A stretch of DNA of 64,000 nucleotides. Origin: Ideonella sp. GTDB taxonomy: Bacteria > Pseudomonadota > Gammaproteobacteria > Burkholderiales > Burkholderiaceae_C. Positions 29,435 through 63,671 of the stretch are shown here, one piece after another. A program made the position numbers and the translations under genes. The stretch lies in the NCBI GenBank assembly GCA_015075545.1, contig JABTUC010000005.1, forward strand, positions 62,001 through 126,000, in the 5' to 3' direction. How positions within the stretch are numbered: position 1 is the first letter of the stretch; every line of letters begins with the position of its first letter. The notes under the pieces are model-generated. The model had not been told where the DNA came from, ran no database searches, and was given only the letters and a program-made list of their open reading frames with translations.

Positions 29435-30832
29435 TCAGCCCTCGTCGACCAGGCAGGCGTCGAGGATGTCGATCGCGGCGTCCACCTGCGCCCGCGTGGT
29501 GATCAGCGGCGGCGTCAGCGTCAGCACGTGGCCCATCGTGGTCTTGAACGACAGGCCCCGCGACAGCGCGCGGTAGAGCACGCGGTCGGCCGCATCGGGA
29601 GCGGGTGTCTTGGCGCAGCGGTCGTGCACCAGCTCGACGCCGAGCAGCAGGCCGCGGCCGCGCACGTCGCCGACGAGAGTGTGGCGCTGCCGCAGCTCGT
29701 GCAGGCGCTGCAGGGCGTGCGCGCCGATTCTTGCCGCGTGTTCGACCAGGCCTTCGCGCTCGATCACCTGCAGCGTGGCGAGCGCGGCGGCGGCGGTGAC
29801 CGGGTTCTTCTCATGGGTGTAGTGGCCGAACGCGTAGTCGCCGGCGACGTCGAGGTCGGCGCGTGCGACACACGCCGCGATCGGCAGCACACCGCCGCCG
29901 AGCGCCTTGCCGAGGACCACGATGTCGGGCGCCACGGCGTCGTGCTCGGCGGCGAAGAAACGCCCGGTCTTGCCCAGGCCGGTGGGGATCTCGTCGAAGA
30001 TCAGCAGCGTGCCGTGCGCGCGACACGTGGCGTGCACCGCCTGCCAGTAGCCTGGCGGCGGCAGGTACGGCACCGCGCGCGCCGGCTCGGCGATGACGGC
30101 GGCGACGTCGCGCTCGCGCTCGAGCACGTAGCGCACCATCGACGCGCACGCGAGCTGGCACTGATCGAGCCGTGGCTGGTTGTCGGCATCGACTCGGTGC
30201 CCGTACGGGCAGCGGTAGCAGCCGAACGGCGCCACGTGTTCGCTGCCCGGCAGCAGCGGCCCGATCGGGCCGCTGCGGAACAGCGACTCGCCGCCGACGC
30301 TCGACGCGCCGAACCCGGCGCCGTGGAACGCATCCCAGAAGCTCAGCGTCTTGAAGCGTCCCGTCGCCGCGCGCGCCAGCTTGATCGCCACCTCGACGGC
30401 GTCGGTGCCGCCGGTGGTGAACAGCACCTTGGCGTCGTGGCCGGTGAGGGCGCGGAACCGCGCGCCCAGCGCCTCGGCCAGTTCGACCGCACGCTCGCTG
30501 GCGAAGCGCCGTGGCGCGAAGCTCAACTCGTCGAGCTGCCGCTTGATCGCCGCCAGCACGTGCGGGTGCGCATAGCCGACGTGGTGCACGTTGTTGCCGT
30601 GAAAGTCCATGTAGCGGCGGCCGGCGGTGTCCTCGATCCAGATGCCCTCGGCCTTGGCGACGGCATCGAGGCATGGCGTCGACACCGACTGGTGCAGGAA
30701 CGCCGCCGCATCGCGCGCCAGCAGGGCGCGGGTGGCGGCATCGAGGTGCTCGGCCTGCCATTGCGAGCGCAGCGGCGAGGCGTTGGTGTCGCCTTCGCTG
30801 GCTGTCGGTTCGGGTTTCACCCGCGTGGTCAT
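29435..30832 (-). CDS. PLP class III aminotransferase-fold enzyme, PbfA-like (1-hydroxy-2-aminoethylphosphonate lyase candidate)
   Basis: The 465-residue fold-type I PLP enzyme shows IEDTAGRRYMDFHGNNVHHV, DAKVLFTTGGTDAVEVAIKL, RFKTLSFWDAFHGAGFGASS and the PLP lysine in VVLGKALGGGVLPIA. The segments SFAPRRFASERAVELAEAL and GPIGPLLPGSEHVAPFGCYR resemble the (R)-1-hydroxy-2-aminoethylphosphonate ammonia-lyase PbfA, which yields phosphonoacetaldehyde and occurs next to phnW-type genes. Here a full 2-AEP route lies 7-23 kb away. An ordinary omega-aminotransferase is the alternative. TIGR/InterPro matching or assay would separate them. Confidence 0.7.
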   Translation of the reverse strand: MTTRVKPEPTASEGDTNASPLRSQWQAEHLDAATRALLARDAAAFLHQSVSTPCLDAVAKAEGIWIEDTAGRRYMDFHGNNVHHVGYAHPHVLAAIKRQLDELSFAPRRFASERAVELAEALGARFRALTGHDAKVLFTTGGTDAVEVAIKLARAATGRFKTLSFWDAFHGAGFGASSVGGESLFRSGPIGPLLPGSEHVAPFGCYRCPYGHRVDADNQPRLDQCQLACASMVRYVLERERDVAAVIAEPARAVPYLPPPGYWQAVHATCRAHGTLLIFDEIPTGLGKTGRFFAAEHDAVAPDIVVLGKALGGGVLPIAACVARADLDVAGDYAFGHYTHEKNPVTAAAALATLQVIEREGLVEHAARIGAHALQRLHELRQRHTLVGDVRGRGLLLGVELVHDRCAKTPAPDAADRVLYRALSRGLSFKTTMGHVLTLTPPLITTRAQVDAAIDILDACLVDEG

Positions 30833-30869
30833 GGCCGCGCATGATAGGCGCGGTGCGCGCCCGGGTGCG

Positions 30870-31565
30870 TCAGGCGATGCGTTCGCGAAGACGCAGCACC
30901 GGCCAGCCGTGCTGGGCAGCGATCATTGCCAGCCGGTCGTCGGGGTTCGCTGCCACCGGGTGCTGCACCGCCTGCAGCAGCGGCAGGTCGTTGATCGAGT
31001 CGCTGTAGAAGGTGCTCCGGCAATCGGACAGGGCGATGCCCTGCCCGTACAACCACTCGTGCAGCCGCGTCACCTTGCCTTCGCGCATGTTGAGCGTGCC
31101 GGCGATGCGGCCAGTGAAGCGGCCGTCGGCATCGACCTCGCAATCGGTGGCGATCAGGTGCGGGATCCCGAGCTGCGCTGCCGTCAGCTCGGTGATGAAG
31201 CGGTTGGTCGCCGTGGTCAGCACCAGCAGATCGCCGGCGCCGCGGTGGCGCTCGACGAGGGCTCGCGCCGCCGCGCCGATACGCGGGGCGACCACGCCTT
31301 CGAGGAACTCGCGGCGCAGCGGCTCCCACTGCGCAGGCGTGCGGCCGGCCAGCGTGGAGACGTAGAACGCGCAGAATTCCGCTGCGCCGACGGTGCCGGC
31401 GCGGTATTCGGCCTCCATGCGATGGTTGCGTGCCTCGAACGCGCCGCGCTCGAGCTCGCCGCGGCGCAACAGGAAGTCGCACCACAGCACGTCGCTGTCG
31501 CCGTCGAGCAGCGTGTGATCGAGGTCGAACAGCGTGAGAGGAAGCAACCGCACCACGGCGCTCAA
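30870..31565 (-). CDS. HAD-IB family hydrolase (SerB-like phosphatase)
   Basis: The 231-residue protein has HAD motif I in LTLFDLDHTLLDGDSDVLWC (nucleophile Asp), motif II in LLVLTTATNRFITELTAAQL, and motif III/IV in TFYSDSINDLPLLQAVQHPV. The helical cap and length match the HAD-IB (phosphoserine phosphatase-like) group. It is not PhnX-like. The start is uncertain: a TTG at 31565 or GTG at 31556/31553 all fit. It is on the same strand as the lyase gene and downstream of the aldehyde dehydrogenase, separated by stem-loops. Confidence 0.87.
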   Translation of the reverse strand: MSAVVRLLPLTLFDLDHTLLDGDSDVLWCDFLLRRGELERGAFEARNHRMEAEYRAGTVGAAEFCAFYVSTLAGRTPAQWEPLRREFLEGVVAPRIGAAARALVERHRGAGDLLVLTTATNRFITELTAAQLGIPHLIATDCEVDADGRFTGRIAGTLNMREGKVTRLHEWLYGQGIALSDCRSTFYSDSINDLPLLQAVQHPVAANPDDRLAMIAAQHGWPVLRLRERIA

Positions 31566-31593
31566 CGCAAGGTCAAGCGGACACCGCGGAACC

Positions 31594-31649
31594 GGCTTCG
31601 CCGGGTCGCTGGTGTCGCCCCCTTGGGGGGGAGGCGGCCGCTAGGCCGC
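31594..31649. repeat. Cluster of REP-like stem-loops after the aldehyde dehydrogenase gene
   Basis: Three small stems follow each other: CCGGC/GCCGG (31594-31606), CCCCC-TT-GGGGG (31617-31628) and GCGGCC-GCTA-GGCCGC (31634-31649). The last overlaps the aldehyde dehydrogenase stop codon. Such G/C-run stems are typical Burkholderiales intergenic repeats and may terminate the catabolic transcript ahead of the HAD gene. Confidence 0.55.
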
Positions 31650-33026
31650 ATCGGGGGGGAGCCTGAGATGCCAGGCCTTGGTGCGCGTGAAGGCGCGGAT
31701 GCCGTGCGTCGACAGCGTCAGGCCGATACCGGAGTCGCCGACGCCTGACCACGGCAGCCGCGGGCTGACGCGGTCGCAGCAGTTCCAGTAGACGCTGCCG
31801 GCGTTCACGCGCGCCAGCAGCTCGCGCGCCCTGGCTTCGTCCCGCGTGTACACGCCGGCGGTGAGACCGTAGCGCGTGTCGTTCATCAGCGCCACCGCCT
31901 CGTCGTCGCCGCGTACCTTCTGGATGCCGATGATCGGGCCGAAGCTCTCTTCGCGCATCAGCTCCATCGTGTGGTCGACCTGCGCGAACACCGTCGGCGC
32001 GTACCAGTTGCCGGGCCCCGGCAGGCGCCGGCCACCGGTGAGCAGCCGGGCGCCTCTGGCCTTGGCGTCGGCCACCTGCGCATCGAGCACTGCGAGCTGC
32101 GGCGCGCGCGTGATCGCCCCGATGTAGGTGTCGGGCGCCATCGGGTCGCCGACCTTGAAGCCGCGCACCGTGGCGGCGAAGTGCTCGACGAAGGCGTCGT
32201 GCAGCGACTCGTGCACGTAGATGCGCTCGACCGAGCAGCAGCTCTGGCCGGTGTTGTACATCGCGCCGTCGGCCAGGCTCTCGGCGGCGGCCTTGGCGTC
32301 GGCATCGGCGCGAACGTAGGTGGGATCCTTGCCGCCGAGCTCGAGCTGCAGCTTCACGAGCCTGGGCGCCAGCGCCTGCGCGATGCGCACGCCGGTGGCG
32401 TGGCTGCCGGTGAAGAACAGGCCGTCGATGCGCTGCGCCAGCAACGCAGCGCCGACCTCGCCGGCGCCGACGAGCGGCTGCATCACCTCGCGCGGCACGC
32501 CGGCCTCGTGCAGCAGCCGCGTGATGTGCATGCCGCTCAGCGTGGCGAACTCCGAGGGTTTGTAGAGCACCGCGTTGCCGGCGAGCAGCGCCGGCACGAT
32601 CACGTTGCAGCCGACGAAGTACGGGTAGTTCCACGCCGAGATGTTGGCCACCACGCCCAGTGGCACGTGGCCGATGCGCTCGCGCATGCCGGCGTCGTCG
32701 AACACCGCTTCGTCGGCGATGGCGCGCTCGGTCTGCGCGAGGAAGAAGTCGATGCGCGGCAGCAGGCCGCTGAGCTCGTTGCGCGACTGCGTGATCGGCT
32801 TGCCGACCTCGGCGGTGAGCGTGACGGCGAGCGTGTCGGCCTGCGCCACCAGCGCGGCGCGAAAGCGTTCGATCGCCGCCAGCCGCTCGCGCAGCGGCAT
32901 GGCCGCCCACGCGGGCTGCGCGGCGCGCGCGGCCTGGGCCTTGCGCGCCACCGAGGCGGCATCGTCGGTGGCGCGCTCGCCGACGACGGCGCCGGTGGCG
33001 GGGTTGTGGATGGTCAGGGTGGGCAT
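31641..33026 (-). CDS. NAD(P)-dependent aldehyde dehydrogenase
   Basis: The 461-residue ALDH has the catalytic Cys in NTGQSCCSVERIYVHESL, the general-base Glu in LVKLQLELGGKDPTYV, the Rossmann loop FTGSHATGVRIAQALAP and the substrate-channel region SAWNYPYFVGCNVIVPALLA. It is the last gene of the run ligase - (toxin pair) - iron alcohol dehydrogenase - two PuuD-like hydrolases - ALDH, separated from the hydrolase by three bases. The expected role is to oxidise a gamma-glutamyl-amino aldehyde. It differs from the PhnY-type enzyme at 51451. Confidence 0.9.
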   Translation of the reverse strand: MPTLTIHNPATGAVVGERATDDAASVARKAQAARAAQPAWAAMPLRERLAAIERFRAALVAQADTLAVTLTAEVGKPITQSRNELSGLLPRIDFFLAQTERAIADEAVFDDAGMRERIGHVPLGVVANISAWNYPYFVGCNVIVPALLAGNAVLYKPSEFATLSGMHITRLLHEAGVPREVMQPLVGAGEVGAALLAQRIDGLFFTGSHATGVRIAQALAPRLVKLQLELGGKDPTYVRADADAKAAAESLADGAMYNTGQSCCSVERIYVHESLHDAFVEHFAATVRGFKVGDPMAPDTYIGAITRAPQLAVLDAQVADAKARGARLLTGGRRLPGPGNWYAPTVFAQVDHTMELMREESFGPIIGIQKVRGDDEAVALMNDTRYGLTAGVYTRDEARARELLARVNAGSVYWNCCDRVSPRLPWSGVGDSGIGLTLSTHGIRAFTRTKAWHLRLPPDAA

Positions 33027-33029
33027 CGT

Positions 33030-33839
33030 TCAGGCCGTGTGTTGCGCGCGGGTCTGCCGGGCGGCGAGCAGGAAGTCGTGCAGCAAAGGGGCATCGTCGA
33101 AATTGTCGGCCGGCGTGTGGAACTCGGGGTGCCACTGCACCGCGGCCACGTACGGTGGCCCGCTGCGGCGTACCGCCTCGATCATGCCGTCGTCGGGGCA
33201 GCAGGCCTCGACCACGAAGCCGGGCGCCAGATCCCTGATTGCCTGGTGGTGGATCGAATTGACGATGCCGTGGTGTACGCCGGGGTACAACTGCGCCAGC
33301 CGCGAGTGGGGCACCAGCTCGATGTCGTGGAAGTGGCGCTCGAACCGCGAGCCGTCGCGGTGTGCGCGCGACGCCGGCCGCTGCGTGGCGATGTCCTGCA
33401 GCAGCGTGCCGCCGTACATCACGTTGAGCAACTGCAGGCCGCGGCAGATGCCGAACACCGGCTTGCCGGCGCGCACGAAGGCGTCGATCAGCTCGATCTC
33501 GTAGCGGTCGCGAACGCGGTCGCCCGCCCAGTCGGGGTGCAGCGGCGTCTCGCCGTAGGTTTCGGGGGCGACGTCGTTGCCGCCTTGCAGCAGCAGGCCG
33601 TCGAGCGTGGCGGCGTAGTCGTCGAGGTCGAGGTCGCTGCGGGTGACGATGCTGTCCTTGGTGACGGCGGGGATCATCACCGCCATCGCGTGGCCCGACA
33701 GCACCCAGTGCGCCACCGACTGCTCGAGGTAGTGCAGGTTCTTGGCCCAGATGCCGCTGATCTGGATGCCGGCGGTGCCCGGCATGTAGATGCGCGCCGA
33801 AACGCCGATCAGCAGCGGGCGCTCGGGCCGGCCCTTCAT
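33030..33839 (-). CDS. Gamma-glutamyl-amide hydrolase, PuuD-like (peptidase C26), copy 1
   Basis: From the ATG at 33837-33839 the 269-residue class I glutamine-amidotransferase-fold enzyme has nucleophile Cys in KPVFGICRGLQLLNVMYGGT and the His/Glu pair in YVAAVQWHPEFHTPADN. PuuD releases gamma-aminobutyrate from its gamma-glutamyl form; paralogues act on other gamma-glutamyl amides. The start overlaps the stop of copy 2 by ATGA. SIHHQAIRDLAPGF is the second conserved family block. Confidence 0.9.
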   Translation of the reverse strand: MKGRPERPLLIGVSARIYMPGTAGIQISGIWAKNLHYLEQSVAHWVLSGHAMAVMIPAVTKDSIVTRSDLDLDDYAATLDGLLLQGGNDVAPETYGETPLHPDWAGDRVRDRYEIELIDAFVRAGKPVFGICRGLQLLNVMYGGTLLQDIATQRPASRAHRDGSRFERHFHDIELVPHSRLAQLYPGVHHGIVNSIHHQAIRDLAPGFVVEACCPDDGMIEAVRRSGPPYVAAVQWHPEFHTPADNFDDAPLLHDFLLAARQTRAQHTA

Positions 33840-34618: not shown

Positions 34619-34620
34619 GC

Positions 34621-35760: not shown

Positions 35761-35763
35761 GAG

Positions 35764-36443: not shown

Positions 36444-36455
36444 GCCGGGGATGCG

Positions 36456-36483
36456 GTAAGGCGCTTGTGGCATTGTGCCTTAC
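36456..36483. promoter_or_regulatory. Operator of the second AbrB/PIN module
   Basis: GTAAGGC (36456-36462) and GCCTTAC (36477-36483), perfect seven-base arms with a 14-base spacer, sit 13 bases upstream of the antitoxin ATG. Placement and arm length parallel the dyad of the 10-kb module, although the sequence differs. Confidence 0.6.
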
Positions 36484-36496
36484 GGTGCCGGGCGCC

Positions 36497-37870
36497 TCAA
36501 ATGATCTCGAAATACCGCTTGAGCTCCCAGTCGGTCACCGCGTCCTGCCACTGCCGGTGCTCCCACTGGCGCGTGGCGGCGAAGTGGTCGACGAAGGTGT
36601 CGCCGAGCCAGTCGCGCGCGATCGCCGACTCCTTGAAGGTGTGCGTGGTGCGCAGCAGCGAGCGCGGTGCGCGCGGGATGTGCTCGCTGCCTTCGTTGGT
36701 GCCGGTGATCGGCGGCGCGGTGAGCTTCAGCCCCTTCTCGACGCCGTGCATGCCGGCAGCCACCACCGCGGCCATCGCCAGGTACGGGTTGATGTCGGCG
36801 CCGGGGCAGCGCGTTTCGAGCCGCGTGCTCTTCGGGCTGGCGGCGATGACGCGGAAGCTCGCGGTGCGGTTGTCCAGGCCCCAGGTCGGCTTGACCGGCG
36901 CCCAGAAGCCGTCGACCAGCCGCTTGTAGCTGTTGACGGTGGGCCAGAACATCGGCGCGAACTCCATCAGGCACGCCACCTGACCGGCGAGGTAGCTCTC
37001 GAACAGCTTGCTCATGCGCCGCTTGCTCTTCTCGTCGAAGAACAGGTTGCGCTTGCCGTCGGACAGGCTCTGGTGGATGTGGCCCGAGCAGCCGGGGTAG
37101 CGCTGGCTCCACTTGGCCATAAAGCTCGGCATGATGCCGAAGCGCTTGCCGATCTCCTTGGCGCCGGTCTTGAAGAGGATCGCGCGGTCGGCCGCTTCGA
37201 GCGCCTCGCTGAAGGCGATGGCCGCTTCGTAGACGCCGGGGCCGGTCTCGGTGTGCAGGCCCTCGATCGGCACCTTGAACGCGAGCATCTCGTCCATCAG
37301 CGCGTTGAAGAACTCGCGGCTGTCGCCCATGCGCAGCAGCGAGTAGCCGAACATGCCCGGGGTCAGCGTGGTGGGGTTGATGCCCTGCTTGGCGGCCCAG
37401 CTTGCCGGTGTCTCGGCGAAGTTGAACCACTCGAACTCGACACCGGCCATCACCTCGAAGCCGAGCTTGCGCGCGCGCTGCAGCACACGCTTCAGCATCT
37501 GCCGCGGACACACCGGGTACGGCGTGCCGTCGGCGTTGACGAACTCGCCGAGGAAGAACGGCACGTTGCCGTCCCACGGCACCGTGCGCGCGGTGTCGAG
37601 GTCGAGCCGCGCCAGCGCGTCGGGAAAGCCGTGCTGCCAGCCGGTGACCTGCGTGTTGTCGTAGCACTGGTCGTGCGAGTCCCAGCCGAACACCACGTCG
37701 CAGAAGCCGAAGCCGCCCTTGGGGTGCGGCTCGGCGGCGCCGAGGAACTTGTCGACGTGCAGGAGCTTGCCGCGCAGGATGCCGTCGATGTCGCTGACCG
37801 CGACCTTGACCTTGCGGGCGCCGGACTTGCGGATGGCGTCGAGCGCCGGATGTTCTTTCTGGGTGGCCAT
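36497..37870 (-). CDS. Glutamine-synthetase-like gamma-glutamyl-amide ligase
   Basis: The 457-residue GS-fold ligase has the beta-Grasp start VAVSDIDGILRGKLLHVDKF, metal and ATP motifs GFEVMAGVEFEWFNFAET, the GS signature region CSGHIHQSLSDGKRNLFF, and TRLETRCPGADINPYLAMAA. It has no adenylylation-site tail and is shorter than type I GlnA, as in PuuA, IpuC and gamma-glutamyl-ethanolamide synthetases. It joins glutamate to an amine (polyamine, ethanolamine or alaninol type) with ATP. With the alcohol and aldehyde dehydrogenases and PuuD-like hydrolases it forms a full gamma-glutamyl route. Confidence 0.88.
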   Translation of the reverse strand: MATQKEHPALDAIRKSGARKVKVAVSDIDGILRGKLLHVDKFLGAAEPHPKGGFGFCDVVFGWDSHDQCYDNTQVTGWQHGFPDALARLDLDTARTVPWDGNVPFFLGEFVNADGTPYPVCPRQMLKRVLQRARKLGFEVMAGVEFEWFNFAETPASWAAKQGINPTTLTPGMFGYSLLRMGDSREFFNALMDEMLAFKVPIEGLHTETGPGVYEAAIAFSEALEAADRAILFKTGAKEIGKRFGIMPSFMAKWSQRYPGCSGHIHQSLSDGKRNLFFDEKSKRRMSKLFESYLAGQVACLMEFAPMFWPTVNSYKRLVDGFWAPVKPTWGLDNRTASFRVIAASPKSTRLETRCPGADINPYLAMAAVVAAGMHGVEKGLKLTAPPITGTNEGSEHIPRAPRSLLRTTHTFKESAIARDWLGDTFVDHFAATRQWEHRQWQDAVTDWELKRYFEII

Positions 37871-37889: not shown

Positions 37890-39008
37890 CTAGAGCGCGG
37901 GTGTACCGTCGGGAATGCCCATCTCGCGCAGCGTGTCGGCCACCGCGGCGACGGCCTGCTGCATCTCGTTGTGCCCGATCGCGCCGATGCAGCCGACGCG
38001 GAAGGTCTCGAGCTGCGTCAGCTTGCCGGGGTAGAGGATGAAGCCGCGCTGCTTGGCCGCGGCGTAGAAGCGCTTGAAGTCGTACGACGGGTGCGCCGGG
38101 GCGTGGAAGGTGACGATGATCGGCGCCTGGATCTCGGGCTTCAGGAACGGCTTGAAGCCCAGTGCGCCCATGCCGTCGACCAGCGTGCGGTAGTTGCCGG
38201 CGTAGCGCGCCAGCCGCGCGGGCTGACCGCCTTCCTCGACGAACTGCGCCACCGCTTCGGCCAGCGCCACCACCACGTGGGTGGGCGGCGTGAAGCGCCA
38301 CTGGCCGGTTTTCTCCATGTAGACGTGCTGGTCGTGCAGGTCCATCGCCAGGCTCTGGCTGTTGCCGGCACAGGCTTCGAGCACCGCCTTGCGGATGAAG
38401 ACGAAGCCCATGCCCGGCACGCCTTCGAGGCACTTGCCGCTGGCGGCGACGAGCGCATCGAAGCGGATGTGGCGCGCATCGATCGGCAGCGCGCCGAAGC
38501 TCGACATGGCGTCGACGATCAGCCCCTTGCCGTGCCTTGCGCAGACCTGCGCGATCTCGGCCAGCGGGTTCTCGACCCCGGTTCCTGTTTCGCAGTGCAC
38601 CAGCACCACGTGGGTGATCGACGGGTCGGCCTTCAGACGCTCGTCGACCGCGGCGGCCGCCACCGGCGCGTCCTCGGCGAACGGCATCACGGTGGCCTTG
38701 CGGCCCATCATCTGCGTCAGCTTGGCGGCGCGCTTGCAGTACGCGCCGTTGTCGGGCACCAGCACGTGGCCGGCCTTGGGCACCAGCGTCGCCACCGCGG
38801 CCTCGACGCTGAAGGTGCCGCTGCCCTGCAGCGGCACCAGCACGTGGCTGTCGTGGCCGTGCACGATGTCGAGCAGCCGGCTGCGCAGCGCGGCTGTGAC
38901 GGCGTTGAAGTCGGCGTCCCACGAGCCCCAGTCCTTCAGCATCGCGAGCTTGGTGCGCAGCGTGGTGGTCAGTGGGCCGGGGGTGAGCAGGATGCGGTCG
39001 CGGTCCAT
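37890..39008 (-). CDS. phnW: 2-aminoethylphosphonate:pyruvate transaminase
   Basis: The 372-residue fold-type I PLP enzyme matches PhnW closely: [73 protein letters not shown]-lysine segment [20 protein letters not shown] and [17 protein letters not shown]. It converts 2-AEP and pyruvate to phosphonoacetaldehyde and alanine. It is 19 bases upstream of the GS-like ligase on the same strand, and its product feeds the PhnY and PhnA enzymes encoded at 50-53 kb. Confidence 0.93.
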
Positions 39009-40545: not shown

Positions 40546-42273
<1,728 letters not shown>

Positions 42274-51443: not shown

Positions 51444-51450
51444 CCCCGCG

Positions 51451-52914
51451 ATGAAGCTTGCGACATCCCCTGCAGCCAAGGAGCTCGGCGCCGAGGTGCG
51501 ACGCGAGGCGATGCGCATCGCCGGCGACGCGGTGCACAGCGAGCGCGTGATCGCGGTGCACTACCCGTACAGCGGCGAGATCGTCGCCACCGTGCCGCGC
51601 GCCGGCGTCGACGACGTGCGCCGCGCGATCCGCATCGCGCGCGACTACCGGCCCAGGCTGACGCGCCACGAGCGCTACCGCATCCTGATGCGCGCCGGCG
51701 AGCTGATCGCGCAGCGCAAGGACGCGATCGCGCGGCAGATCACGCTCGAATCGGGGCTGTGCCTGAAGGATTCGACCTACGAAGTCGGCCGCGCCAGCGA
51801 CGTGCTGCTGTTCGCCGCGCAGCAGGCGCTGGTCGACGACGGCCAGAGCTTCGCCTGCGACCTCACGCACCACGGCAAGCAGCGCCGCGTGCACACGATG
51901 CGCGAGCCGCTGCAGGGCGTGATCAGCGCGATCACGCCGTTCAACCACCCGCTGAACCAGGTGATCCACAAGGTGGCGCCGGCGGTGGCCACCAACAACC
52001 GCATGGTGCTCAAACCCAGCGAGAAGACGCCGCTGGCGGCGCTGACGCTGGCCGACATCCTGTACGAGGCCGGGCTGCCGCCGCCGATGCTGTCGGTGGT
52101 GACCGGCGAGCCCGCCGAGATCGCAGACGAGATGCTGACGCACCCCGACGTCGACCTCGTCAGCTTCACCGGCGGCGTGGCGATCGGCAAGCACATCGCG
52201 GCGCGTGCGGTCTACAAGCGGCAGGTGCTCGAGCTCGGCGGCAACGATCCGCTGGTGGTGATGGACGACGCCGACGTCAACAAGGCGGCCGACCTCGCCG
52301 CCAGCGGCTCGTACAAGAACAGCGGCCAGCGCTGCACCGCGGTCAAGCGCATCTTCGTGCACCAGCGACTGGCCGACGACTTCACGCAGGCGCTGCTCGA
52401 GCGCACCCGGGCGTGGCGCCACGGCGACCCGCTGGACCCCAAGGTCGACATGGGCACGGTGATCGACGAACGTGCGGCGATGCTGTTCGAGCGCCGCGTT
52501 GCCGATGCGGTGGCGCAAGGCGCGCGGCTGCTGCACGGCAACCAGCGCGAGGGTGCGCTGTACGCACCGACGCTGCTCGATCAGGTGCGCGGCGCGATGG
52601 AGGTGGTGCAGCAGGAAACCTTCGGCCCGGTGTCGCCGGTGATGACCTTCAAGGACGTCGACGACGCCATCGCCCAGGTCAACTCCACCGCCTTCGGCCT
52701 GTCGTCGGGCGTGTGCAGCAACCGGCTCGACGACATCATGCGCTTCGTGCGCGAACTGCACGTGGGGTCGGTCAACGTCTGGGAGGTGCCGGGGTACCGC
52801 CTGGAATCCACGCCGTTCGGCGGCATCAAGGATTCCGGCCTCGGCTACAAGGAGGGCGTGCAGGAGGCCTGCAAGAGCTTCACCAACGTGAAGACGTATT
52901 CGCTGCCTTGGTAA
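51451..52914 (+). CDS. phnY: Phosphonoacetaldehyde dehydrogenase
   Basis: The 487-residue ALDH has catalytic Cys in YKNSGQRCTAVKRIFVHQRL, Glu in KRQVLELGGNDPLVVMDDAD, and the PhnY-type C-terminus NVWEVPGYRLESTPFGGIKD followed by SGLGYKEGVQEACKSFTNVK. It oxidises phosphonoacetaldehyde to phosphonoacetate with NAD. It follows phnA by seven bases. With PhnW (37.9 kb) and PhnA it gives the C-P hydrolytic pathway that does not need PhnX. Confidence 0.92.
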   Translation: MKLATSPAAKELGAEVRREAMRIAGDAVHSERVIAVHYPYSGEIVATVPRAGVDDVRRAIRIARDYRPRLTRHERYRILMRAGELIAQRKDAIARQITLESGLCLKDSTYEVGRASDVLLFAAQQALVDDGQSFACDLTHHGKQRRVHTMREPLQGVISAITPFNHPLNQVIHKVAPAVATNNRMVLKPSEKTPLAALTLADILYEAGLPPPMLSVVTGEPAEIADEMLTHPDVDLVSFTGGVAIGKHIAARAVYKRQVLELGGNDPLVVMDDADVNKAADLAASGSYKNSGQRCTAVKRIFVHQRLADDFTQALLERTRAWRHGDPLDPKVDMGTVIDERAAMLFERRVADAVAQGARLLHGNQREGALYAPTLLDQVRGAMEVVQQETFGPVSPVMTFKDVDDAIAQVNSTAFGLSSGVCSNRLDDIMRFVRELHVGSVNVWEVPGYRLESTPFGGIKDSGLGYKEGVQEACKSFTNVKTYSLPW

Positions 52915-53095: not shown

Positions 53096-53135
53096 TTGGT
53101 TCAATTGCTTGTCAGCATCGAACGGGGTGGAACAA

Positions 53136-53827: not shown

Positions 53828-56251
53828 ATGACGCTGCCGTCGTGTGCCCGCATCGTCATCGTCGGCGGCGGCATCGCCGGCTGCTCGACCGCCTACCACC
53901 TCGCCCGGCTCGGCATCGGCGACGTGCTGCTGCTCGAGCAGGGCAGGCTCACCTGCGGCACCACCTGGCACGCCGCCGGGCTGGTGGGCCAGATGCGGCC
54001 CAACCGCAACATGACCGCGATGAGCAGGTACGGCATCGAGCTGTACTCGACGCTCGAAGCGGAGACGGGGCTGGCCACCGGCTGGAAGCAATGCGGCAGC
54101 GTCAACGTCGCCGCCACGCCCGAGCGCTGGCAGGTGCTGAAGAAGCAGGCGGCGCTGGCGCGCAGCTTCGGCGTCGAGGTGCAGTTGATCACGCCGCGCG
54201 AGGCGGGCGACATTGTGCCGGTGATGCGCACCGACGACCTGCACGGCGCGATGTGGATCCCCGGCGACGGCAAGGCCAACCCGGCCGACCTGTGCATGAG
54301 CCTGGCCAAGGGCGCGCGCAACCGCGGCGTGCGAATCGTCGAAGGCATCGAGGTCACCGGCGTCAGCAGCGAGCGCGACGGCAGCGGCCGCCGCGTCGCC
54401 GCCGTGCGCACCGCGCAGGGCGACGTGCGCTGCGAGGTGCTGGTCAACTGCGCGGGCCAGTGGGCGCGGCAGTTCGGCGCCCTGGCCGGCGTCGGCGTGC
54501 CGCTGTATTCGGCCGAGCACTTCTACATCGTCACCGACCGGATCGACGGCGTGCATCCGATGCTGCCCGTGGTGCGCGACCCCGACGGCTGCATCTACTA
54601 CAAGGAGGAGGTCGGCGGCCTGCTGATGGGCGGCTTCGAGCCCAAGGCCAAGCCGTGGCGGGTCGACCCGATCCCGAGCACCTTTCAGTTCCAGTTGCTC
54701 GACGAAGACTGGGATCAGTTCGAGCCGTTGATGACCAACGCGATCCACCGCACCCCGTGCCTGGAGAGCGCGCGGGTCAAGATGCTGCTCAACGGCCCCG
54801 AGAGCTTCACCCCCGACGGCAACTTCATCGTCGGCGAGGCGCCGGGGTTGCGCGGCTATTTCGTCTGCGCGGGCTTCAACTCCGCGGGCATCGCCAACTC
54901 CGGCGGTGCGGGGCGGCTGATCGCGCAGTGGATCGTCGACGGCGAGGCGCCGGGCGACCTGTGGGACGTCGACCTGCGGCGCTTCGGCTCGTTCGCTGTC
55001 AACCGCAAGGCGCTCGCCGAGCGCACCGCCGAGACGCTCGGCCTGCACTATGCGATGCGCTGGCCGCGGCAGGAGTTGCAATCGGCACGGCCGCTGCGCA
55101 CCTCGCCGCTGTACGACCTGCTCGACGCCAAGGGCGCGCAGTGGGGCAGCAAGAACGGCTGGGAGCGCGTCAATTACTTCGAGCCTGACACGGCAGCCCG
55201 GCCACCGCACACCCTCGGCGTGCCCGGCTGGTTGCCATGGGTGCAGGCCGAGCAGCGCGCCACGCGCGAGGCGGTAGCGATCTACGACCAGACTTCGTTC
55301 GGCAAGCTGCTGGTGCAGGGGCGCAGCGCGGCGGCGCTGCTGCAGCGGCTGTGCGCCAACGACGTCGACGTGGCGGCCGGCAAGATGGTCTACACCGCGA
55401 TGCTCAATGCACGCGGCGGCTTCGAGAGCGACCTCACCGTGCTGCGGCTGGGCGAGGAGCGCTTCCAGCTCATCACCGGCTCGGCGCAGCCGCAGCGCGA
55501 CCTCGACTGGATCGAGCGTCACATCGAGCCGCACGAGCACGCGGTGGTCACCGACGTCAGCGCGCTGACCGCGGTGCTTTCGGTGATGGGGCCGCTCGCC
55601 GATGAGCTGCTGGGCCGCGTCTGCCCCGATGACCTGCCGGGGCTGAAGTTTTCCCATACGCGCGAGGTCGACGTCGGGCTGGCGCGCGTGCGCGCCGCGC
55701 GCATGAGCTACGTCGGCGGCCCGGGGTACGAGCTGTATGTGCCGATCGAGATGGCGCGCCATGTCTACCTCGCATTGCATGAGGCGGGTGCCGATCTCGG
55801 CCTGACCGACGCGGGGTACTACGCGATCGACGCGCTGCGCATCGAGGCGGGCCGGCGCGCCTGGGGCGCCGAACTCGGGCCCGACGACACGCCGTGGGAG
55901 GCCGGCCTCGGCTTCGCGGTCAAGCTCGACAAGCCGGCGGCGTTCATCGGCCGCGAGGCGCTGCTGGCCGCGCGCGAGAAAGCTCCGCGCAAGAAGCTGG
56001 TGAGCGTGGTGTTCGACGATCCCTCGGTCTACGCCTGGGGCGGCGAGGCAGTGCACCTCGACGGCGAGCCGGTGGGCGAGCTGTCGTCGGCGGGCTGGAG
56101 CCTCGCCGCGGGCGCGTGCGCCAGCCTCGGCTACGTGCGCGGCGCAGCGGCGCAGCAAGCGCACGGCGGCACGCCGGTCACGGTCGATCTCTGGGGCGAG
56201 GCTGTCGCGGCCCAGCTGTGGGACCGCGCGCCGCGCGATCGCGGCGCCTGA
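53828..56251 (+). CDS. FAD-dependent oxidoreductase with GcvT domain (sarcosine/dimethylglycine dehydrogenase-like)
   Basis: This is an 807-residue protein. N-terminal DAO-type Rossmann fold: RIVIVGGGIAGCSTAYHLAR, then GTTWHAAGLVGQMRPNRNMT with the His-containing flavinylation-like segment. It ends in the folate-binding GcvT half (YDQTSFGKLLVQGRSAAALL; GPGYELYVPIEMARHVYLAL; GAELGPDDTPWEAGLGFAVK). Such enzymes oxidatively N-demethylate dimethylglycine or sarcosine and pass formaldehyde to tetrahydrofolate. The ATG at 53828 follows the intergenic terminator. It lies tail to tail with the glycerol ABC operon and the pilin gene. Confidence 0.88.
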   Translation: MTLPSCARIVIVGGGIAGCSTAYHLARLGIGDVLLLEQGRLTCGTTWHAAGLVGQMRPNRNMTAMSRYGIELYSTLEAETGLATGWKQCGSVNVAATPERWQVLKKQAALARSFGVEVQLITPREAGDIVPVMRTDDLHGAMWIPGDGKANPADLCMSLAKGARNRGVRIVEGIEVTGVSSERDGSGRRVAAVRTAQGDVRCEVLVNCAGQWARQFGALAGVGVPLYSAEHFYIVTDRIDGVHPMLPVVRDPDGCIYYKEEVGGLLMGGFEPKAKPWRVDPIPSTFQFQLLDEDWDQFEPLMTNAIHRTPCLESARVKMLLNGPESFTPDGNFIVGEAPGLRGYFVCAGFNSAGIANSGGAGRLIAQWIVDGEAPGDLWDVDLRRFGSFAVNRKALAERTAETLGLHYAMRWPRQELQSARPLRTSPLYDLLDAKGAQWGSKNGWERVNYFEPDTAARPPHTLGVPGWLPWVQAEQRATREAVAIYDQTSFGKLLVQGRSAAALLQRLCANDVDVAAGKMVYTAMLNARGGFESDLTVLRLGEERFQLITGSAQPQRDLDWIERHIEPHEHAVVTDVSALTAVLSVMGPLADELLGRVCPDDLPGLKFSHTREVDVGLARVRAARMSYVGGPGYELYVPIEMARHVYLALHEAGADLGLTDAGYYAIDALRIEAGRRAWGAELGPDDTPWEAGLGFAVKLDKPAAFIGREALLAAREKAPRKKLVSVVFDDPSVYAWGGEAVHLDGEPVGELSSAGWSLAAGACASLGYVRGAAAQQAHGGTPVTVDLWGEAVAAQLWDRAPRDRGA

Positions 56252-56275
56252 CCTGGCTTTGGAAGTGCGCGCCCG

Positions 56276-56892: not shown

Positions 56893-56906
56893 CGATCGCG
56901 CGCGCG

Positions 56907-57206
56907 TCAGACGAAGCGAAACACCAGCAGCGCCAGCACGATCGACGCCATCGTCGCACCCCACACCGGCGCCGGCACCAGCGCCAGCCACAGCAGGTGC
57001 AGGTAACCCGCCGCGAGCAGCGAGATGAACAGGCGGTCGCCGCGCGTGGTGCGCAGGCCGAGCACGCCGCGACGCGGTGCGCCGCCCGGCACGCGCCACT
57101 CCCACACCGCCATGATCAGCAGCAGCAGCGCGATCACGCCGAAGAACGCCGCGGTCTGCCACGTCCAGGCCATCCAGCTGAGTCCGGCACCGACGTTGGG
57201 TTGCAC
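56907..57206 (-). CDS. DUF2160 small membrane protein of the glycerol ABC operon
   Basis: The 99-residue protein has three hydrophobic segments (WMAWTWQTAAFFGVIALLLL; RLFISLLAAGYLHLLWLALV; ATMASIVLALLVFRFV) and the DUF2160 pattern of the small subunit that accompanies GlpS/T/P/Q-type glycerol importers. It is last in the operon, 15 bases after the permease gene. Its function is unknown; it may stabilise the permease pair. Confidence 0.85.
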   Translation of the reverse strand: MQPNVGAGLSWMAWTWQTAAFFGVIALLLLIMAVWEWRVPGGAPRRGVLGLRTTRGDRLFISLLAAGYLHLLWLALVPAPVWGATMASIVLALLVFRFV

Positions 57207-57221
57207 ACCTGCTCCTGCTGA

Positions 57222-58022
<801 letters not shown>

Positions 58023-58694
58023 GTCAGGCCTCCTTGCGAGTTCCGCGCCCACTGCACCGGCCGAGGGAGGCAAAGCCGACAGCGGGTATGCGCCGACGCT
58101 CGTGCGGGTGCTCCATGCGCAGAGCAGAGCATGCAAGGCTGTGGGCGGGCAGGCCGGCGCGCGCTACCACGGGCGCCTCGGCCCTGCGGGCCGAGGTCCC
58201 CTGCGCTGCTCGCGGCCCAAGGGCGGCTCCGCCCCTCGCCCTCGCATGGCCGGCACGCTGCTCGCGCAGCGTGCCTATGCTCGGAGCTCGACATGCTCGC
58301 CGTCGCGACGCGCTTGGGCGCGTCGCGATGCCCCTTGGTCCGCTGCGCTGCTCGGCGCCCTCCAAGCGCGCCCCGGCCTGCCCGCCCGCAGCCTTGCCGG
58401 CACCACCGTGGCATGCGTCGACAAACACCACGAGCGCCACAGCGCGGTGGGCGGTACCCGGTGGGGGCGACTTGTGGGGCGGCGAGAAGCGGAGCAGCGC
58501 AAGGGGAAGTCCGGCCCGCAAGGGCCGGACCGGCGAGGAGCCGTGAAGTCGTGGCGCGTTCAGCGCCACGACGAGCGGTACCGCAGCCGCCCTTGCGATG
58601 CGAGCATCGCAGCGCAGTCGGCCCGCAGGGCCGACCGCCACAGTAGGAGCCCCCATCGGGTACCGCTCACCGCGCCGCGCCAAACTCAAATCAC
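58023..58694. repeat. 672-bp array of stem-loops between the two permease genes
   Basis: This gap, where a few bases would be usual, contains no recognisable gene. Perfect stems lie at 58176-58196, 58252-58275 (10 bp), 58303-58328 (11 bp), 58509-58530, 58548-58572 (10 bp), 58594-58611 and 58617-58635. The arms 58133-58164 and 58366-58397 form a 32-base inverted repeat with two mismatches around a 200-base loop. GAGCGGTACC/GGTACCGCTC (58573-58582, 58659-58668) enclose the last two. A long reverse open frame exists but has no family match I recognise. The pattern suggests a composite repeat insertion. Confidence 0.8.
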
Positions 58695-59564
<870 letters not shown>

Positions 59565-59580
59565 GCGAAGTACGCGCCGT

Positions 59581-60663
<1,083 letters not shown>

Positions 60664-60678
60664 GCGTGCGCTCTTCCT

Positions 60679-61740
60679 TCAGGCCGCGAGCCGGCGCCCC
60701 TGGTCGTCGAAGTACAGGCAGTGCTCGACGTCGAGCGCGAACGTGGCCGCCTCGCCGACGGTGTGGCTGCGCACGCCCTGCGCCAGCGACACCCAAGTGC
60801 CGCCGGCGAGGCCGAAGTGGATCACGCTTTCGGAGCCGGAGATCTCGCTGATCAGCACCGGCCCGCTCACCGGCACGCCACGACCGCCAGCCGGGCGCAC
60901 GTGGTGCGGCCGCAGCGCGACCGTGATGTCGCCGTCGCGCACGGCTTGCAGCGCCGGCGGTGCATGCCAGCGCACCGCGTCGCCGAGCGCGATCTGCGCG
61001 CCGTGCTTGGTGGCGCGCGCCACGTTGATCGGCGGGTCGGAGAACACGCGCGCACTGGTCAGATCGGCGGGTTCGCGGTAGACGCCGATCGCCGGGCCGA
61101 ACTGCGTCACGCGGCCCTCGTGCAGCGTGGCCACGCGGCCGCCGAGCAGCAGCGCCTCGCCGGGCTCGGTGGTGGCGTACACCACCGTGCAACCACGATC
61201 GGCGAACAGCCGCGGCAGCTCGTCGCGCAGCGCCTCGCGCAGCTTGTAGTCGAGGTTGGCCAGCGGCTCGTCGAGCAGCACCAGGTCGGCGTCCTTGACC
61301 AGCGCACGCGCCAGCGCCGTGCGCTGCTGCTGGCCGCCCGATAGCTCGGCGGGCCTGCGATCGAGCAGCGGGCCGAGCTTCAGCAGCTCGGCGATGCGAC
61401 CGACACGCGCCTTGACCTCGGCTGCAGGCGTGCGCGTCACGCGCAGCGGCGACGCGATGTTCTCGAACACGCTCAGGTTCGGGTAGTTGATGAACTGCTG
61501 GTACACCATCGACACGCGGCGGCGCTGCACCGGCTGGCCGGTGACGTTGCGCCCGTCGAACCAGACCTCGCCGCTGGTCGGCCTGACCAGGCCGGCCATC
61601 AGCCGCAGCAGCGTCGTCTTGCCGGCAAGCGTTTCGCCGAGCAGGGTGTTGAAGCCGCGCTCGCCCAACGCGAGGTCGGTGGGGTGGATGTGGACGTCGC
61701 CGCCGACCTGCAGCGCGACCTGGCGCAGAGCGAGCGTCAT
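60679..61740 (-). CDS. Glycerol ABC transporter ATPase (GlpS-like)
   Basis: The 353-residue ATPase has a non-canonical Walker A, LLGETLAGKTTLLRLMAGLV (GxTLAGKT), but an intact signature LSGGQQQRTALARALVKDAD, Walker B LVLLDEPLANLDYKL, and TTEPGEALLLGGRVATLHEG where the H-loop His is a Thr/Glu context. The complementary defects in the two ATPases suggest one composite active site per sandwich face. It is the first ATPase after the binding protein, separated by a strong stem-loop. Confidence 0.87.
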   Translation of the reverse strand: MTLALRQVALQVGGDVHIHPTDLALGERGFNTLLGETLAGKTTLLRLMAGLVRPTSGEVWFDGRNVTGQPVQRRRVSMVYQQFINYPNLSVFENIASPLRVTRTPAAEVKARVGRIAELLKLGPLLDRRPAELSGGQQQRTALARALVKDADLVLLDEPLANLDYKLREALRDELPRLFADRGCTVVYATTEPGEALLLGGRVATLHEGRVTQFGPAIGVYREPADLTSARVFSDPPINVARATKHGAQIALGDAVRWHAPPALQAVRDGDITVALRPHHVRPAGGRGVPVSGPVLISEISGSESVIHFGLAGGTWVSLAQGVRSHTVGEAATFALDVEHCLYFDDQGRRLAA

Positions 61741-61804
61741 GGCGGTGCGGGCACGACAGGCACGGGTGGTCGCACGGTGGTGGGCGGCAGCCGGCCGTTC
61801 GAGG

Positions 61805-61829
61805 CGAGGGGGCGCAGCGCGCCCCCTCG
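61805..61829 (-). terminator. Stem-loop between binding-protein and ATPase genes
   Basis: CGAGGGGGCGC, loop AGC, GCGCCCCCTCG: a perfect 11-pair stem 28 bases after the binding-protein stop on the reverse strand. No T-run follows, so it more likely slows RNA decay or attenuates, giving more binding protein than membrane components. Confidence 0.65.
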
Positions 61830-61856
61830 TGGCTCGGGCCGGAAGCCGGTGTCGCC

Positions 61857-63671
61857 TTACTTGGTTGCCGCCCAGCGCTTGACGATCTCCTCGTACGCCA
61901 TCGTCACGCCCTTGGGCTTCTCGTTGGCGAGCTTGGCCTTCGGACCGTCGGGCTTGCCGAGCCACTGCTTCGGATCGACCGGCTTGTTCAGCCGTGGCCC
62001 GCAGCCGCCGTAGGTCTTGGCCTTCTCGTCGGCCTCCTGCATGCGCGCCATCACCTGGTCCATCTCTTCGGCCAGGCGGTCCATCGCCTTCTGCGGCGTG
62101 AACGCACCGGAGTTGACGTCGCCAATCTGCTGCCACCAGAGCTGCGCGAGCTTCGGATAGTCGGGCACGTTGATCCCGGTGGGCGTCCACATCACGCGGT
62201 CGGGCGAGCGGTAGAACTCCACCATGCCGCCGAGCTTGGGCGCGCGCTCGGTGAACGACGCGTGGCGCACCGTGCTGTCGCGGATGAAGGTGAGACCGAC
62301 GTGGCTCTTCTTGGTGTCGACGGTCTTGCTGGTCACGAACTGCGCGTACAGCCAGGCCGCCTTGGCGCGCGCCGTCGGCGTGCTCTTGAACAGCGTCCAC
62401 GAGCCGGCGTCTTGATAGCCGAGCTTCATGCCTTCGACCCAGTACGAGCCTTTGGGGCTCGGCGCCATGCGCCACAGCGGGTTGCCGTTGTCGTCGACGG
62501 TGTTGTTGCCGTCCTTCTTGGGCGCCACCATCGACGCGGTGAACGCGGTGTACCAGAACACCTGCTGCGCCACGTTGCCCTGCGCCAGCGCGGGCAGCGA
62601 CTGGTAGAAGTCGTAGTCGGCGGCGCCGGGCGGCGCGTACTTGCGCAGCCACTCGTCCCACTTGGCGATCGCGTACACCGACGCCGGGCCGTTGGTCTCG
62701 CCGCCGCGCGACACGCTCGCGCCCTGCGGGTTGCACGAACCCTCGGGCATGCGGATGCCCCACTCGTCGATCGGGCGGCCGTTGGGCAGGCCCTTGCTCG
62801 AGGCGCCGGCCATCGACAGCCAGGCGTCGGTCATGCGCCAGCCGAGGTCGGGCGCGCGCTTGCCGTAGTCCATGTGGCCGTAGATGCGCTTGCCGTCGAT
62901 CTCCTTCACGTCGACGCTGAAGAAGTGCGCGATGTCCTCGTAGGCACTCCAGTTCACCGGTACGCCGAGTTCGTAGCCGTACTTGGCCTTGAACTTGGCC
63001 TTCAGCTCGGGCTTGTCGAACCAGTCCTTGCGGAACCAGTAGAGGTTGGCGAACTGCTGGTCGGGGAGCTGCCACACCTTGCCGTCGGGGCCGGTGGTGA
63101 AGCTGATACCGATGAAATCCTTGATGTCGAGGCCGGGGTTGGTGACGTCCTTGCCTTCACCGGCCATCCAGTCGCTCAAGTTGACCGCCGACTGCAGCCG
63201 CGAGTGCGTGCCGATCAGGTCGGAGTCGTTGATGTAGCCGTCGTAGAGGTTGCGGTTGGTCTGCATCTGCGTCTGCACTGCCTGCACGACCTCGCCCTCG
63301 CCGAGCAACTGGTGGTTGACCTTGATGCCGGTGATCTCCTGGAACGCCTTGGCCAGCGTCTTGCTCTCGTACTCGTGCGTCGGGATCGTCTCCGACAGCA
63401 CGTTGATCTCCATGCCCGCGAACGGCTTGGCCGCGGCGATGAACCACTGCATCTCCTTGAGCTGGTCTTCTTTCGACAGCACCGAGGGCTGGAACTCGCT
63501 GTCGATCCAGCGCTTGGCGGCTTCTTCCGAGCCCTGCGCGGCCGGTGCCTGCGTGGCCGCCGGCGCTGCCGCGGGCGCGGCGGCCGCGGGTGCTTCCTCT
63601 TTCTTGCCGCAACTCATCAGGACCACCGTGGCCGCCAGGGCCACTGCCGTCAGAACCGGTCTCCTATCCAT
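61857..63671 (-). CDS. Glycerol ABC transporter substrate-binding lipoprotein (GlpV-like)
   Basis: The 604-residue protein has a lipoprotein signal with lipobox LMSC at residues 18-21 (ATVVLMSC|GKKEEAP). An Ala/Pro linker precedes a large binding fold (EINVLSETIPTHEYESKTLA; YINDSDLIGTHSRLQSAVNL; RMPEGSCNPQGASVSRGGET; YGGCGPRLNKPVDPKQWLG). GlpV-type glycerol-binding proteins are this long. It sits downstream of glpD on the same strand and starts the uptake operon. Confidence 0.9.
   Translation of the reverse strand: MDRRPVLTAVALAATVVLMSCGKKEEAPAAAAPAAAPAATQAPAAQGSEEAAKRWIDSEFQPSVLSKEDQLKEMQWFIAAAKPFAGMEINVLSETIPTHEYESKTLAKAFQEITGIKVNHQLLGEGEVVQAVQTQMQTNRNLYDGYINDSDLIGTHSRLQSAVNLSDWMAGEGKDVTNPGLDIKDFIGISFTTGPDGKVWQLPDQQFANLYWFRKDWFDKPELKAKFKAKYGYELGVPVNWSAYEDIAHFFSVDVKEIDGKRIYGHMDYGKRAPDLGWRMTDAWLSMAGASSKGLPNGRPIDEWGIRMPEGSCNPQGASVSRGGETNGPASVYAIAKWDEWLRKYAPPGAADYDFYQSLPALAQGNVAQQVFWYTAFTASMVAPKKDGNNTVDDNGNPLWRMAPSPKGSYWVEGMKLGYQDAGSWTLFKSTPTARAKAAWLYAQFVTSKTVDTKKSHVGLTFIRDSTVRHASFTERAPKLGGMVEFYRSPDRVMWTPTGINVPDYPKLAQLWWQQIGDVNSGAFTPQKAMDRLAEEMDQVMARMQEADEKAKTYGGCGPRLNKPVDPKQWLGKPDGPKAKLANEKPKGVTMAYEEIVKRWAATK

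What the first reader, a model, noticed from the sequence alone, without database searches (positions are those of the whole stretch)
29435..63671. A possible polar-head-group salvage island
Within 35 kb lie a complete 2-AEP route (importer, PhnW, PhnY, PhnA), a PbfA-like lyase, a gamma-glutamyl route suited to ethanolamine-like amino alcohols, a sarcosine/dimethylglycine dehydrogenase-like enzyme and a two-ATPase glycerol importer next to glpD. These four substrates (2-AEP, amino alcohol, N-methylglycine, glycerol) are the head-group and backbone pieces of phospho- and phosphonolipids. Seen: the genes and their order. Known: each pathway alone. Inferred: that they form one lipid-scavenging function.
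Basis: partly seen in the sequence, partly recalled or inferred. Interest (0 to 1): 0.7.

Follow-up and report, generated by a model that had tools for sequence, protein, structure and literature searches.

The report
Aminophosphonate cluster with ethanolamine, demethylase modules
Beside its known genes for eating the phosphonate 2-AEP, this bacterium keeps a conserved gene set probably for ethanolamine and a folate-type flavoenzyme that may strip methyl groups from methylated 2-AEP, whereas the nearby glycerol importer looks like a mere neighbour.

Summary
The genes are real. The window holds a complete PhnWYA-type 2-AEP cluster (importer, PhnW, PhnA, PhnY) with PbfA, a glutamine-synthetase-like/Fe-ADH/ALDH/amidohydrolase set, a DMGDH-type flavoenzyme, and a two-ATPase importer beside glpD.

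Comparison with relatives splits the proposed island. Linked: in the 16 of 119 other family genomes that carry both, the GS-like gene lies in the phn cluster (16 of 16). The DMGDH-like gene lies by phn genes in 13 of 15, and its clade is phn-linked in Alpha- and Betaproteobacteria. Not linked: the glycerol importer, seen near phn genes in 1 of 80 flavoenzyme loci.

In two GS-less relatives the 2-AEP cluster carries ethanolamine ammonia-lyase, once in the GS module's own slot; this points to ethanolamine as the module's substrate. The flavoenzyme was in no fetched locus found beside the other FAD enzymes that sit near phnW elsewhere, and 19 of 20 genomes with its clade also have PhnW. I propose a folate-coupled demethylase returning N-methyl-AEP to AEP (inferred, untested). 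The head-group idea is partly supported: aminoethyl head groups, without glycerol. My paper searches found no description of either module in 2-AEP clusters.

The parts
29435..30832 (-). [quoted passage not shown]
   Evidence: NF049939, 642.6 bits, cut-off 525
30870..31556 (-). HAD-IB phosphatase; proposed (weakly) phosphoethanolamine phosphatase
   Evidence: TIGR01490 over cut-off; below histidinol-phosphatase equivalogs; beside EutBC in G011
31641..33026 (-). Aldehyde dehydrogenase of the gamma-glutamyl module
   Evidence: ALDH family, no equivalog cut-off reached; linked to GS in relatives
33030..33839 (-). GATase/Peptidase_C26 amidohydrolase 1 (gamma-glutamyl hydrolase type)
   Evidence: PF07722
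33836..34618 (-). GATase/Peptidase_C26 amidohydrolase 2
   Evidence: PF07722
34621..35760 (-). Iron-type alcohol dehydrogenase of the gamma-glutamyl module
   Evidence: PF00465; orthologue missing in the EutBC genome G011
36497..37870 (-). Glutamine-synthetase-like ligase, proposed ethanolamine gamma-glutamylase
   Evidence: PF00120; PDB 11zs and 5dm3 best; in the phn cluster in 16 of 16 relatives with PhnW
37890..39008 (-). PhnW, 2-AEP:pyruvate transaminase
   Evidence: TIGR02326, 495.0 bits, cut-off 400.8
42305..44014 (-). 2-AEP importer permease PhnU2
   Evidence: TIGR03262 over cut-off
44017..45069 (-). 2-AEP importer ATPase PhnT2
   Evidence: TIGR03265 over cut-off
45140..46174 (-). 2-AEP importer binding protein PhnS2
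   Evidence: TIGR03261 over cut-off
46503..48188 (+). Na/Pi cotransporter-type protein, possible exit for surplus phosphate
   Evidence: TIGR00704 over cut-off; recurrent in phn clusters
48280..49152 (+). EamA-type membrane protein of the phosphonate-associated TIGR03340 kind
   Evidence: 233.3 bits, below cut-off 288.15; in 62 of 80 flavoenzyme loci
49417..50151 (+). PhnR-like GntR regulator
   Evidence: TIGR03338 255.2 bits, below cut-off 271.5
50250..51443 (+). PhnA, phosphonoacetate hydrolase
   Evidence: TIGR02335 over cut-off
51511..52914 (+). PhnY, phosphonoacetaldehyde dehydrogenase
   Evidence: TIGR03250 over cut-off
53828..56251 (+). DMGDH-type flavoenzyme (DAO, FAO_M, GCV_T), proposed folate-coupled N-methyl-AEP demethylase
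   Evidence: Domains; model matches rat DMGDH, TM 0.93, 33% identity; phn-linked clade
56907..63671 (-). Two-ATPase importer beside glpD: a neighbour, judged not part of the linked system
   Evidence: unlinked in relatives, adjacent in 1 of 80 loci

Best explanation
This is a 2-AEP (PhnWYA) catabolic cluster with two conserved accessory modules that widen it to other aminoethyl head groups. (1) A gamma-glutamyl module probably degrades ethanolamine: it is ligated to glutamate, the alcohol is oxidised twice, and the amide is hydrolysed to glycine and glutamate; the HAD enzyme may first free ethanolamine from phosphoethanolamine. (2) The DMGDH-type flavoenzyme probably oxidises N-methyl-AEP or N,N-dimethyl-AEP, hands the methyl carbon to tetrahydrofolate and releases AEP for PhnW. 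PbfA adds hydroxy-AEP. Shown: gene identities, linkage, clade structure, domain architecture, EutBC in two GS-less clusters. Inferred: both substrates, the HAD role, joint regulation. The glycerol-type importer is a lineage-specific neighbour.
For: GS in the phn cluster in 16 of 16 family genomes with both genes. EutB and EutC in the GS slot in G011 and in the G075 cluster; G011 lacks the module's ADH. A permease close to the ethanolamine-permease model in L052, with relatives in L033 and L044. Flavoenzyme by phn genes in 13 of 15 and in 47 of 53 loci with 6 kb or more upstream, PhnX-only clusters included. Four of five phylum hits at 56% or more within 3 kb of phnW; 0 of 17 hits at 53% or less in genomes with PhnW within 20 kb. 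One clade, support 1.0. Full-length DMGDH fold, FAD-histidine and folate-site residues kept. Other FAD amine enzymes sit by phnW only where this one is absent, in the loci and sample examined. PhnW present in 19 of 20 genomes with the clade.
Against: No activity is known for any of the accessory enzymes. Three loci with long flanks (L095, L134, L151) and the genomes G118 and G436 carry the clade enzyme with no phn gene seen nearby. G110 shows none on an 8-kb contig. In G101 GS is followed directly by HAD and PbfA, with the ADH elsewhere. Seven of 23 GS genomes have no PhnW. HAD is absent beside EutBC in G075 and lies next to a topoisomerase-like gene in several loci. Clade-specific residues were not mapped to the pocket.
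Confidence: 0.5

Rival explanations
1. One reading: one lipid-scavenging island of four modules, glycerol import included, with the flavoenzyme serving sarcosine or dimethylglycine from choline lipids.
For: All genes lie within 35 kb in the window, and L077 repeats the order including the importer. The flavoenzyme has the DMGDH architecture.
Against: Glycerol binding protein not seen near PhnW in any of 10 genomes with both (three on one contig, 0.61 Mb or more apart); adjacent in 1 of 80 loci. The flavoenzyme follows phosphonate genes, and the DMGDH-like clades at 53% identity or less do not.
Confidence: 0.1
2. The flavoenzyme is an ordinary dimethylglycine/sarcosine dehydrogenase that became a fixed neighbour of phn genes, for instance to provide one-carbon units.
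For: Full-length match to DMGDH with FAD and folate sites kept; a few clade members have no phn neighbour.
Against: Association holds across Alpha- and Betaproteobacteria, with PhnA/PhnY or PhnX, and in different gene orders; no choline or betaine genes were recognised in the clusters mapped by similarity.
Confidence: 0.25
3. The gamma-glutamyl module acts on a phosphonate or other amine (AEP, hydroxy-AEP, methylamine from N-methyl-AEP) and not on ethanolamine.
For: Its enzymes reach no specific NCBIfam cut-off; fixed position after phnW; in G101 GS is followed by HAD and PbfA.
Against: EutBC in the same slot in G011 and in the G075 cluster; ethanolamine-permease-like gene nearby in three loci; the alcohol and aldehyde dehydrogenases suit an amino alcohol; GS also occurs in 7 genomes without PhnW.
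Confidence: 0.2

Closest known systems
PhnWYA and PhnWX 2-AEP clusters with ancillary enzymes PbfA, PbfB, PbfC, PbfD, PbfF (PMC8154272, PMC10590968, PMC12366243; passages and single sections seen)
   Same: Importer, PhnW, PhnA, PhnY and PbfA are present and over their cut-offs; an FAD amine enzyme is part of the cluster.
   Different: The FAD enzyme is a full-length DMGDH type with a folate domain, not a stand-alone PF01266 enzyme; an ethanolamine-type module is added. In the passages seen, PbfC and PbfD give phosphonoacetaldehyde and methylamine; here AEP and a folate-bound carbon are proposed.
Gamma-glutamyl ethanolamine pathway (Phaeobacter, PMC10132767, passages seen; GlnA4 of Streptomyces, PMC6529630, listing only)
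   Same: Same four kinds of enzyme: GS-like ligase, alcohol dehydrogenase, aldehyde dehydrogenase, amidohydrolase.
   Different: No TRAP importer; it sits inside a 2-AEP cluster with an added HAD phosphatase; substrate not tested.
Dimethylglycine dehydrogenase / oxidase (PDB 4pab, 5l46, 1pj5)
   Same: Domain order, fold (TM 0.90-0.93), FAD-histidine motif and folate residues.
   Different: 31-33% identity; its own clade, tied to phosphonate genes.
Two-ATPase glycerol importer GlpSTPQ(U)V of rhizobia (recalled, no call)
   Same: Two ATPases, two permeases, DUF2160 protein, binding protein, glpD next to it.
   Different: Not part of the linked system.

Membership tests
PhnWYA 2-AEP catabolic cluster | phnW, phnY and phnA together with a 2-AEP importer | tested here: met
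   All over curated cut-offs
PhnWYA 2-AEP catabolic cluster | growth on 2-AEP | not testable with these tools
   Needs a culture
Gamma-glutamyl ethanolamine pathway | GS-like ligase, alcohol and aldehyde dehydrogenases and amidohydrolase in one operon | tested here: met
   31641-37870; order kept in relatives
Gamma-glutamyl ethanolamine pathway | ethanolamine as substrate | tested here: inconclusive
   Context only: EutBC in the same slot or cluster
Dimethylglycine dehydrogenase family | DAO + FAO_M + GCV_T architecture and fold | tested here: met
Dimethylglycine dehydrogenase family | FAD-binding histidine motif and folate-site residues | tested here: met
   His48 in all 97 sequences without a gap there; Asp535 98 of 99, Glu635 99 of 99; that these are the catalytic positions is recalled
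Dimethylglycine dehydrogenase family | activity on dimethylglycine | not testable with these tools
   Needs purified enzyme
PbfC-type N-methyl-AEP dehydrogenase | single PF01266 enzyme close to the Azospirillum B510 protein | tested here: not met
   The window enzyme carries a folate domain and, as a query, did not mark the B510 FAD enzyme's place, which a PbfC-like query from L201 did at 44%
Four-module head-group island (reader) | all four modules linked in relatives | tested here: not met
   Glycerol importer not linked
Two-ATPase glycerol importer | two ATPases, two permeases, DUF2160 protein, binding protein | tested here: met
   glycerol specificity not tested

The most novel reading that the evidence does not exclude
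A clade of folate-coupled DMGDH-type flavoenzymes, found in Alpha- and Betaproteobacterial 2-AEP clusters, demethylates N-methyl-AEPs to AEP and feeds the methyl carbon into one-carbon metabolism: a further, demethylating solution to N-methyl-AEP beside PbfB, PbfC and PbfD. Its clusters often also degrade ethanolamine or phosphoethanolamine, so that one locus handles aminoethyl head groups whether phosphonate or phosphate.
Probability: 0.4. Interest if true: 0.7.

Novelty: new variant of a known kind. Interest (0 to 1): 0.55.

Why it matters
The routes for N-methyl-AEP described in the papers seen oxidise it to phosphonoacetaldehyde and methylamine. A demethylating, folate-linked route would tie phosphonate use to one-carbon metabolism. 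A recurrent ethanolamine module inside 2-AEP clusters would suggest that bacteria treat phosphonolipid and phospholipid head groups as one resource. Both predictions can be tested with single purified enzymes and with cultured relatives such as Polaromonas and Sinorhizobium.

Tried and rejected
Rejected: glycerol import as part of the system. Rejected: a role for the two small ORFs between GS and ADH; they match a PIN domain and a MazE antitoxin. Considered: the gamma-glutamyl module being phosphonate-specific because G101 has GS-HAD-PbfA; weakened because G101 keeps the ADH orthologue (71%) on another contig, although the ALDH beside it there is only 40% identical. Considered: clade-specific residues as a substrate signature (nine positions; Lys149 in 98 of 99 against Gln in 23 of 24); left open because they were not mapped to the pocket. 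The stretch 58024-58694 gave no gene and is a dispersed repeat. No Rfam match at gathering score except the tRNA. Literature searches listed no paper that, in what I saw, describes either accessory module in 2-AEP clusters; supplements could not be read, so an entry in the tables of PMC10590968 is not excluded.

Caveats on counts. The 99-member clade contains at least 8 genomes twice (same contigs from two collections). The 80 genome-contig loci are the best 80 of 120, all 69% identical or more. One search scored at most two candidates per genome. For G118 I read 19.9 of 37.6 kb of the contig. The comparison of PhnW presence with TIGR03364 (12 of 23) is loose, because only 3 of those TIGR03364 genes lie near phnW. 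That TIGR03364 proteins are PbfD-like is a guess. The topoisomerase-like gene and several gap genes were named by eye, not by a search.
Full report
What is there. The window is G000:C9:62001-126000 of an incomplete (85%) genome in 13 contigs. The same-genus genome G098 agrees in contig length with a MAG titled Ideonella sp.. HMM scans confirm PbfA, PhnW, the PhnSTU2 importer, PhnA and PhnY, each over its curated cut-off. They also show a minus-strand run of GS-like ligase, Fe-ADH, two GATase-type amidohydrolases, ALDH and a HAD-IB phosphatase, and a DAO+FAO_M+GCV_T protein. The last item in the finding is a two-ATPase importer. The ORF at its right end is the binding protein, and most of glpD lies beyond the window edge (735.5 bits).

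Linkage test in the family. I used one sample of 120 genomes, own included. GS-like orthologues at 78% identity or more occur in 23 others and PhnW in 24 others. Sixteen carry both, and in those 16 the GS gene lies in the phn cluster: 15, and G055 by a piece of the gene at a contig edge beside phnW. The usual order is phnSTU-phnW-GS-ADH-GAT-ALDH-HAD. Of the seven GS genomes without PhnW, six have some phn-associated neighbour (EamA protein, Na/Pi, PhnR- or PhnS2-like), and one (G112) has only a 7-kb contig. Three more distant GS homologues (45-49%) are not near phn genes. The flavoenzyme gene occurs in 15 others and is beside PhnA, PhnY or PhnW in 13. G118 has another context, and G110 only an 8-kb contig without phn genes.

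The glycerol part. The binding protein occurs in 48 others, 10 of which have PhnW. Three of these have both on one contig, 0.61, 0.99 and 2.9 Mb apart; in seven they lie on different contigs, which by itself does not exclude a broken neighbourhood. Among 80 flavoenzyme loci only L077 has the importer next to it, and the same-genus genome G098 has no match to the binding protein. The adjacency looks recent and local.

Why ethanolamine. In G011, which lacks the GS gene, the slot between phnW and HAD holds EutB (714.3 bits, cut-off 554) and EutC (323.7, cut-off 230). In G075, also without GS, EutB and EutC (685.6 and 308.4 bits) stand at the other end of the phn cluster. G011 also lacks the module's ADH: its best match is 40% identical and is a 4-hydroxybutyrate dehydrogenase over cut-off. 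L052 has a permease at 372.8 bits to the ethanolamine permease model, just under its cut-off of 381.75, with relatives in L033 and L044. The same kinds of enzyme are raised during growth on phosphorylethanolamine in Phaeobacter (PMC10132767, passages). Ethanolamine is therefore the best substrate guess; it remains an inference. HAD as a phosphoethanolamine phosphatase is weaker: it stays beside EutBC in G011 but was not found near EutBC in G075, and in several loci it lies next to a topoisomerase-like gene.

The flavoenzyme and phosphonate genes. Of 80 genome-contig loci, 53 have more than 6 kb before the gene. In 41 of these a PhnA, PhnY, PhnW or PhnX gene is present, and 6 more have only a PhnX-like gene, of which the two tested pass the phosphonatase cut-off: 47 of 53. 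L104, L106 and L125 keep only accessory genes, and L095, L134 and L151 none. In a phylum sample of 349 genomes, own included, five other hits are 56% identical or more, and four of them lie within 3 kb of phnW (G169, G189, G442, G213; not G436). Of 59 hits at 53% or less, 17 are in genomes with PhnW and none of those is within 20 kb of it (nearest G350, 28 kb). A Sinorhizobium meliloti plasmid shows the gene beside a LysR gene, Na/Pi, phnW, phnA, phnY and the importer. A tree of 123 sequences puts these in one clade of 99 with support 1.0, apart from 24 others. The clade holds some genomes twice and a few members without phn neighbours.

Mechanism. The model (mean pLDDT 87.5) matches rat DMGDH over its length (TM 0.93, 33% identity). 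The FAD-histidine motif and the folate-site residues are kept (which residues are catalytic is recalled). PbfB, PbfC and PbfD are distant PF01266 enzymes, 20.6-24.7% (SarDH 26.5% for PbfC) identical to sarcosine dehydrogenase in that domain; PbfC and PbfD turn N-methyl-AEP into phosphonoacetaldehyde and methylamine (PMC10590968, section 8 and passages; PMC10574752, passages). Where the DMGDH-type gene is absent, other FAD enzymes sit by phnW in some genomes: TIGR03364 proteins in G067 and G078 and a SolA-like one in G117, 3 of 7 such loci examined. The G117 protein is 44% identical to the FAD enzyme of the Azospirillum B510 phn cluster, the organism of the characterised PbfC. None of the fetched loci with the DMGDH-type gene gave a match to these. 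In the phylum sample three other genomes have TIGR03364 and one a PbfC-like gene within 6 kb of phnW, and none has two types there. A Paraburkholderia cluster has yet another, TIGR03329.

Why demethylation. A demethylase yields AEP and so needs PhnW; an enzyme that yields phosphonoacetaldehyde does not. PhnW is present in 19 of 20 other genomes with the clade (14 of 15 in the family, 5 of 5 in the phylum sample). The exception, G112, is 76% complete. For TIGR03364 the figure is 12 of 23, a loose comparison because most of those genes are not near phnW. The direction fits, but it proves nothing about chemistry.

Verdict. The conserved unit is a 2-AEP cluster widened to ethanolamine (likely) and N-methyl-AEP (possible); glycerol is a neighbour. 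The 2-AEP pathway and the gamma-glutamyl ethanolamine pathway are each known. Their recurrent association, and the phosphonate-linked DMGDH clade, did not appear in the papers that my searches listed.

Noticed in passing
58024-58694: A 670-bp non-coding stretch rich in inverted repeats sits between the two permease genes of the importer. It has about 14 other places of 290 bp or more (71-94% identity) in the genome, 69 matches in all, and by the gene positions in L077 seems absent there.
   Followed up: partly
35764-36443: A PIN-domain protein and a MazE-type antitoxin protein inserted between the GS and ADH genes; similar pairs at the same place in L038 and L049.
   Followed up: partly
L059:211-1242: In G101 a 2-hydroxyacid-dehydrogenase-like gene stands just before phnR; it could be a PbfF-type racemase gene in a betaproteobacterium.
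   Followed up: no
L065:4971-5519: An HD-domain oxygenase gene over the TIGR03276 cut-off lies just before the EamA gene; relatives occur in 37 of 80 flavoenzyme loci, but none was seen in the window's cluster.
   Followed up: partly
L067:6632-8035 and L135:15080-16213: Rieske-type proteins weakly like glycine betaine monooxygenase lie near the flavoenzyme gene in G110 and in Limnohabitans loci. They could act on trimethylated substrates.
   Followed up: no
39059-42273: A beta-lactamase-fold hydrolase and an acyl-CoA ligase lie between phnW and the importer; they did not recur at that place in the relatives mapped.
   Followed up: no
53091-53681: A small PEP-CTERM protein gene between phnY and the flavoenzyme gene.
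   Followed up: no
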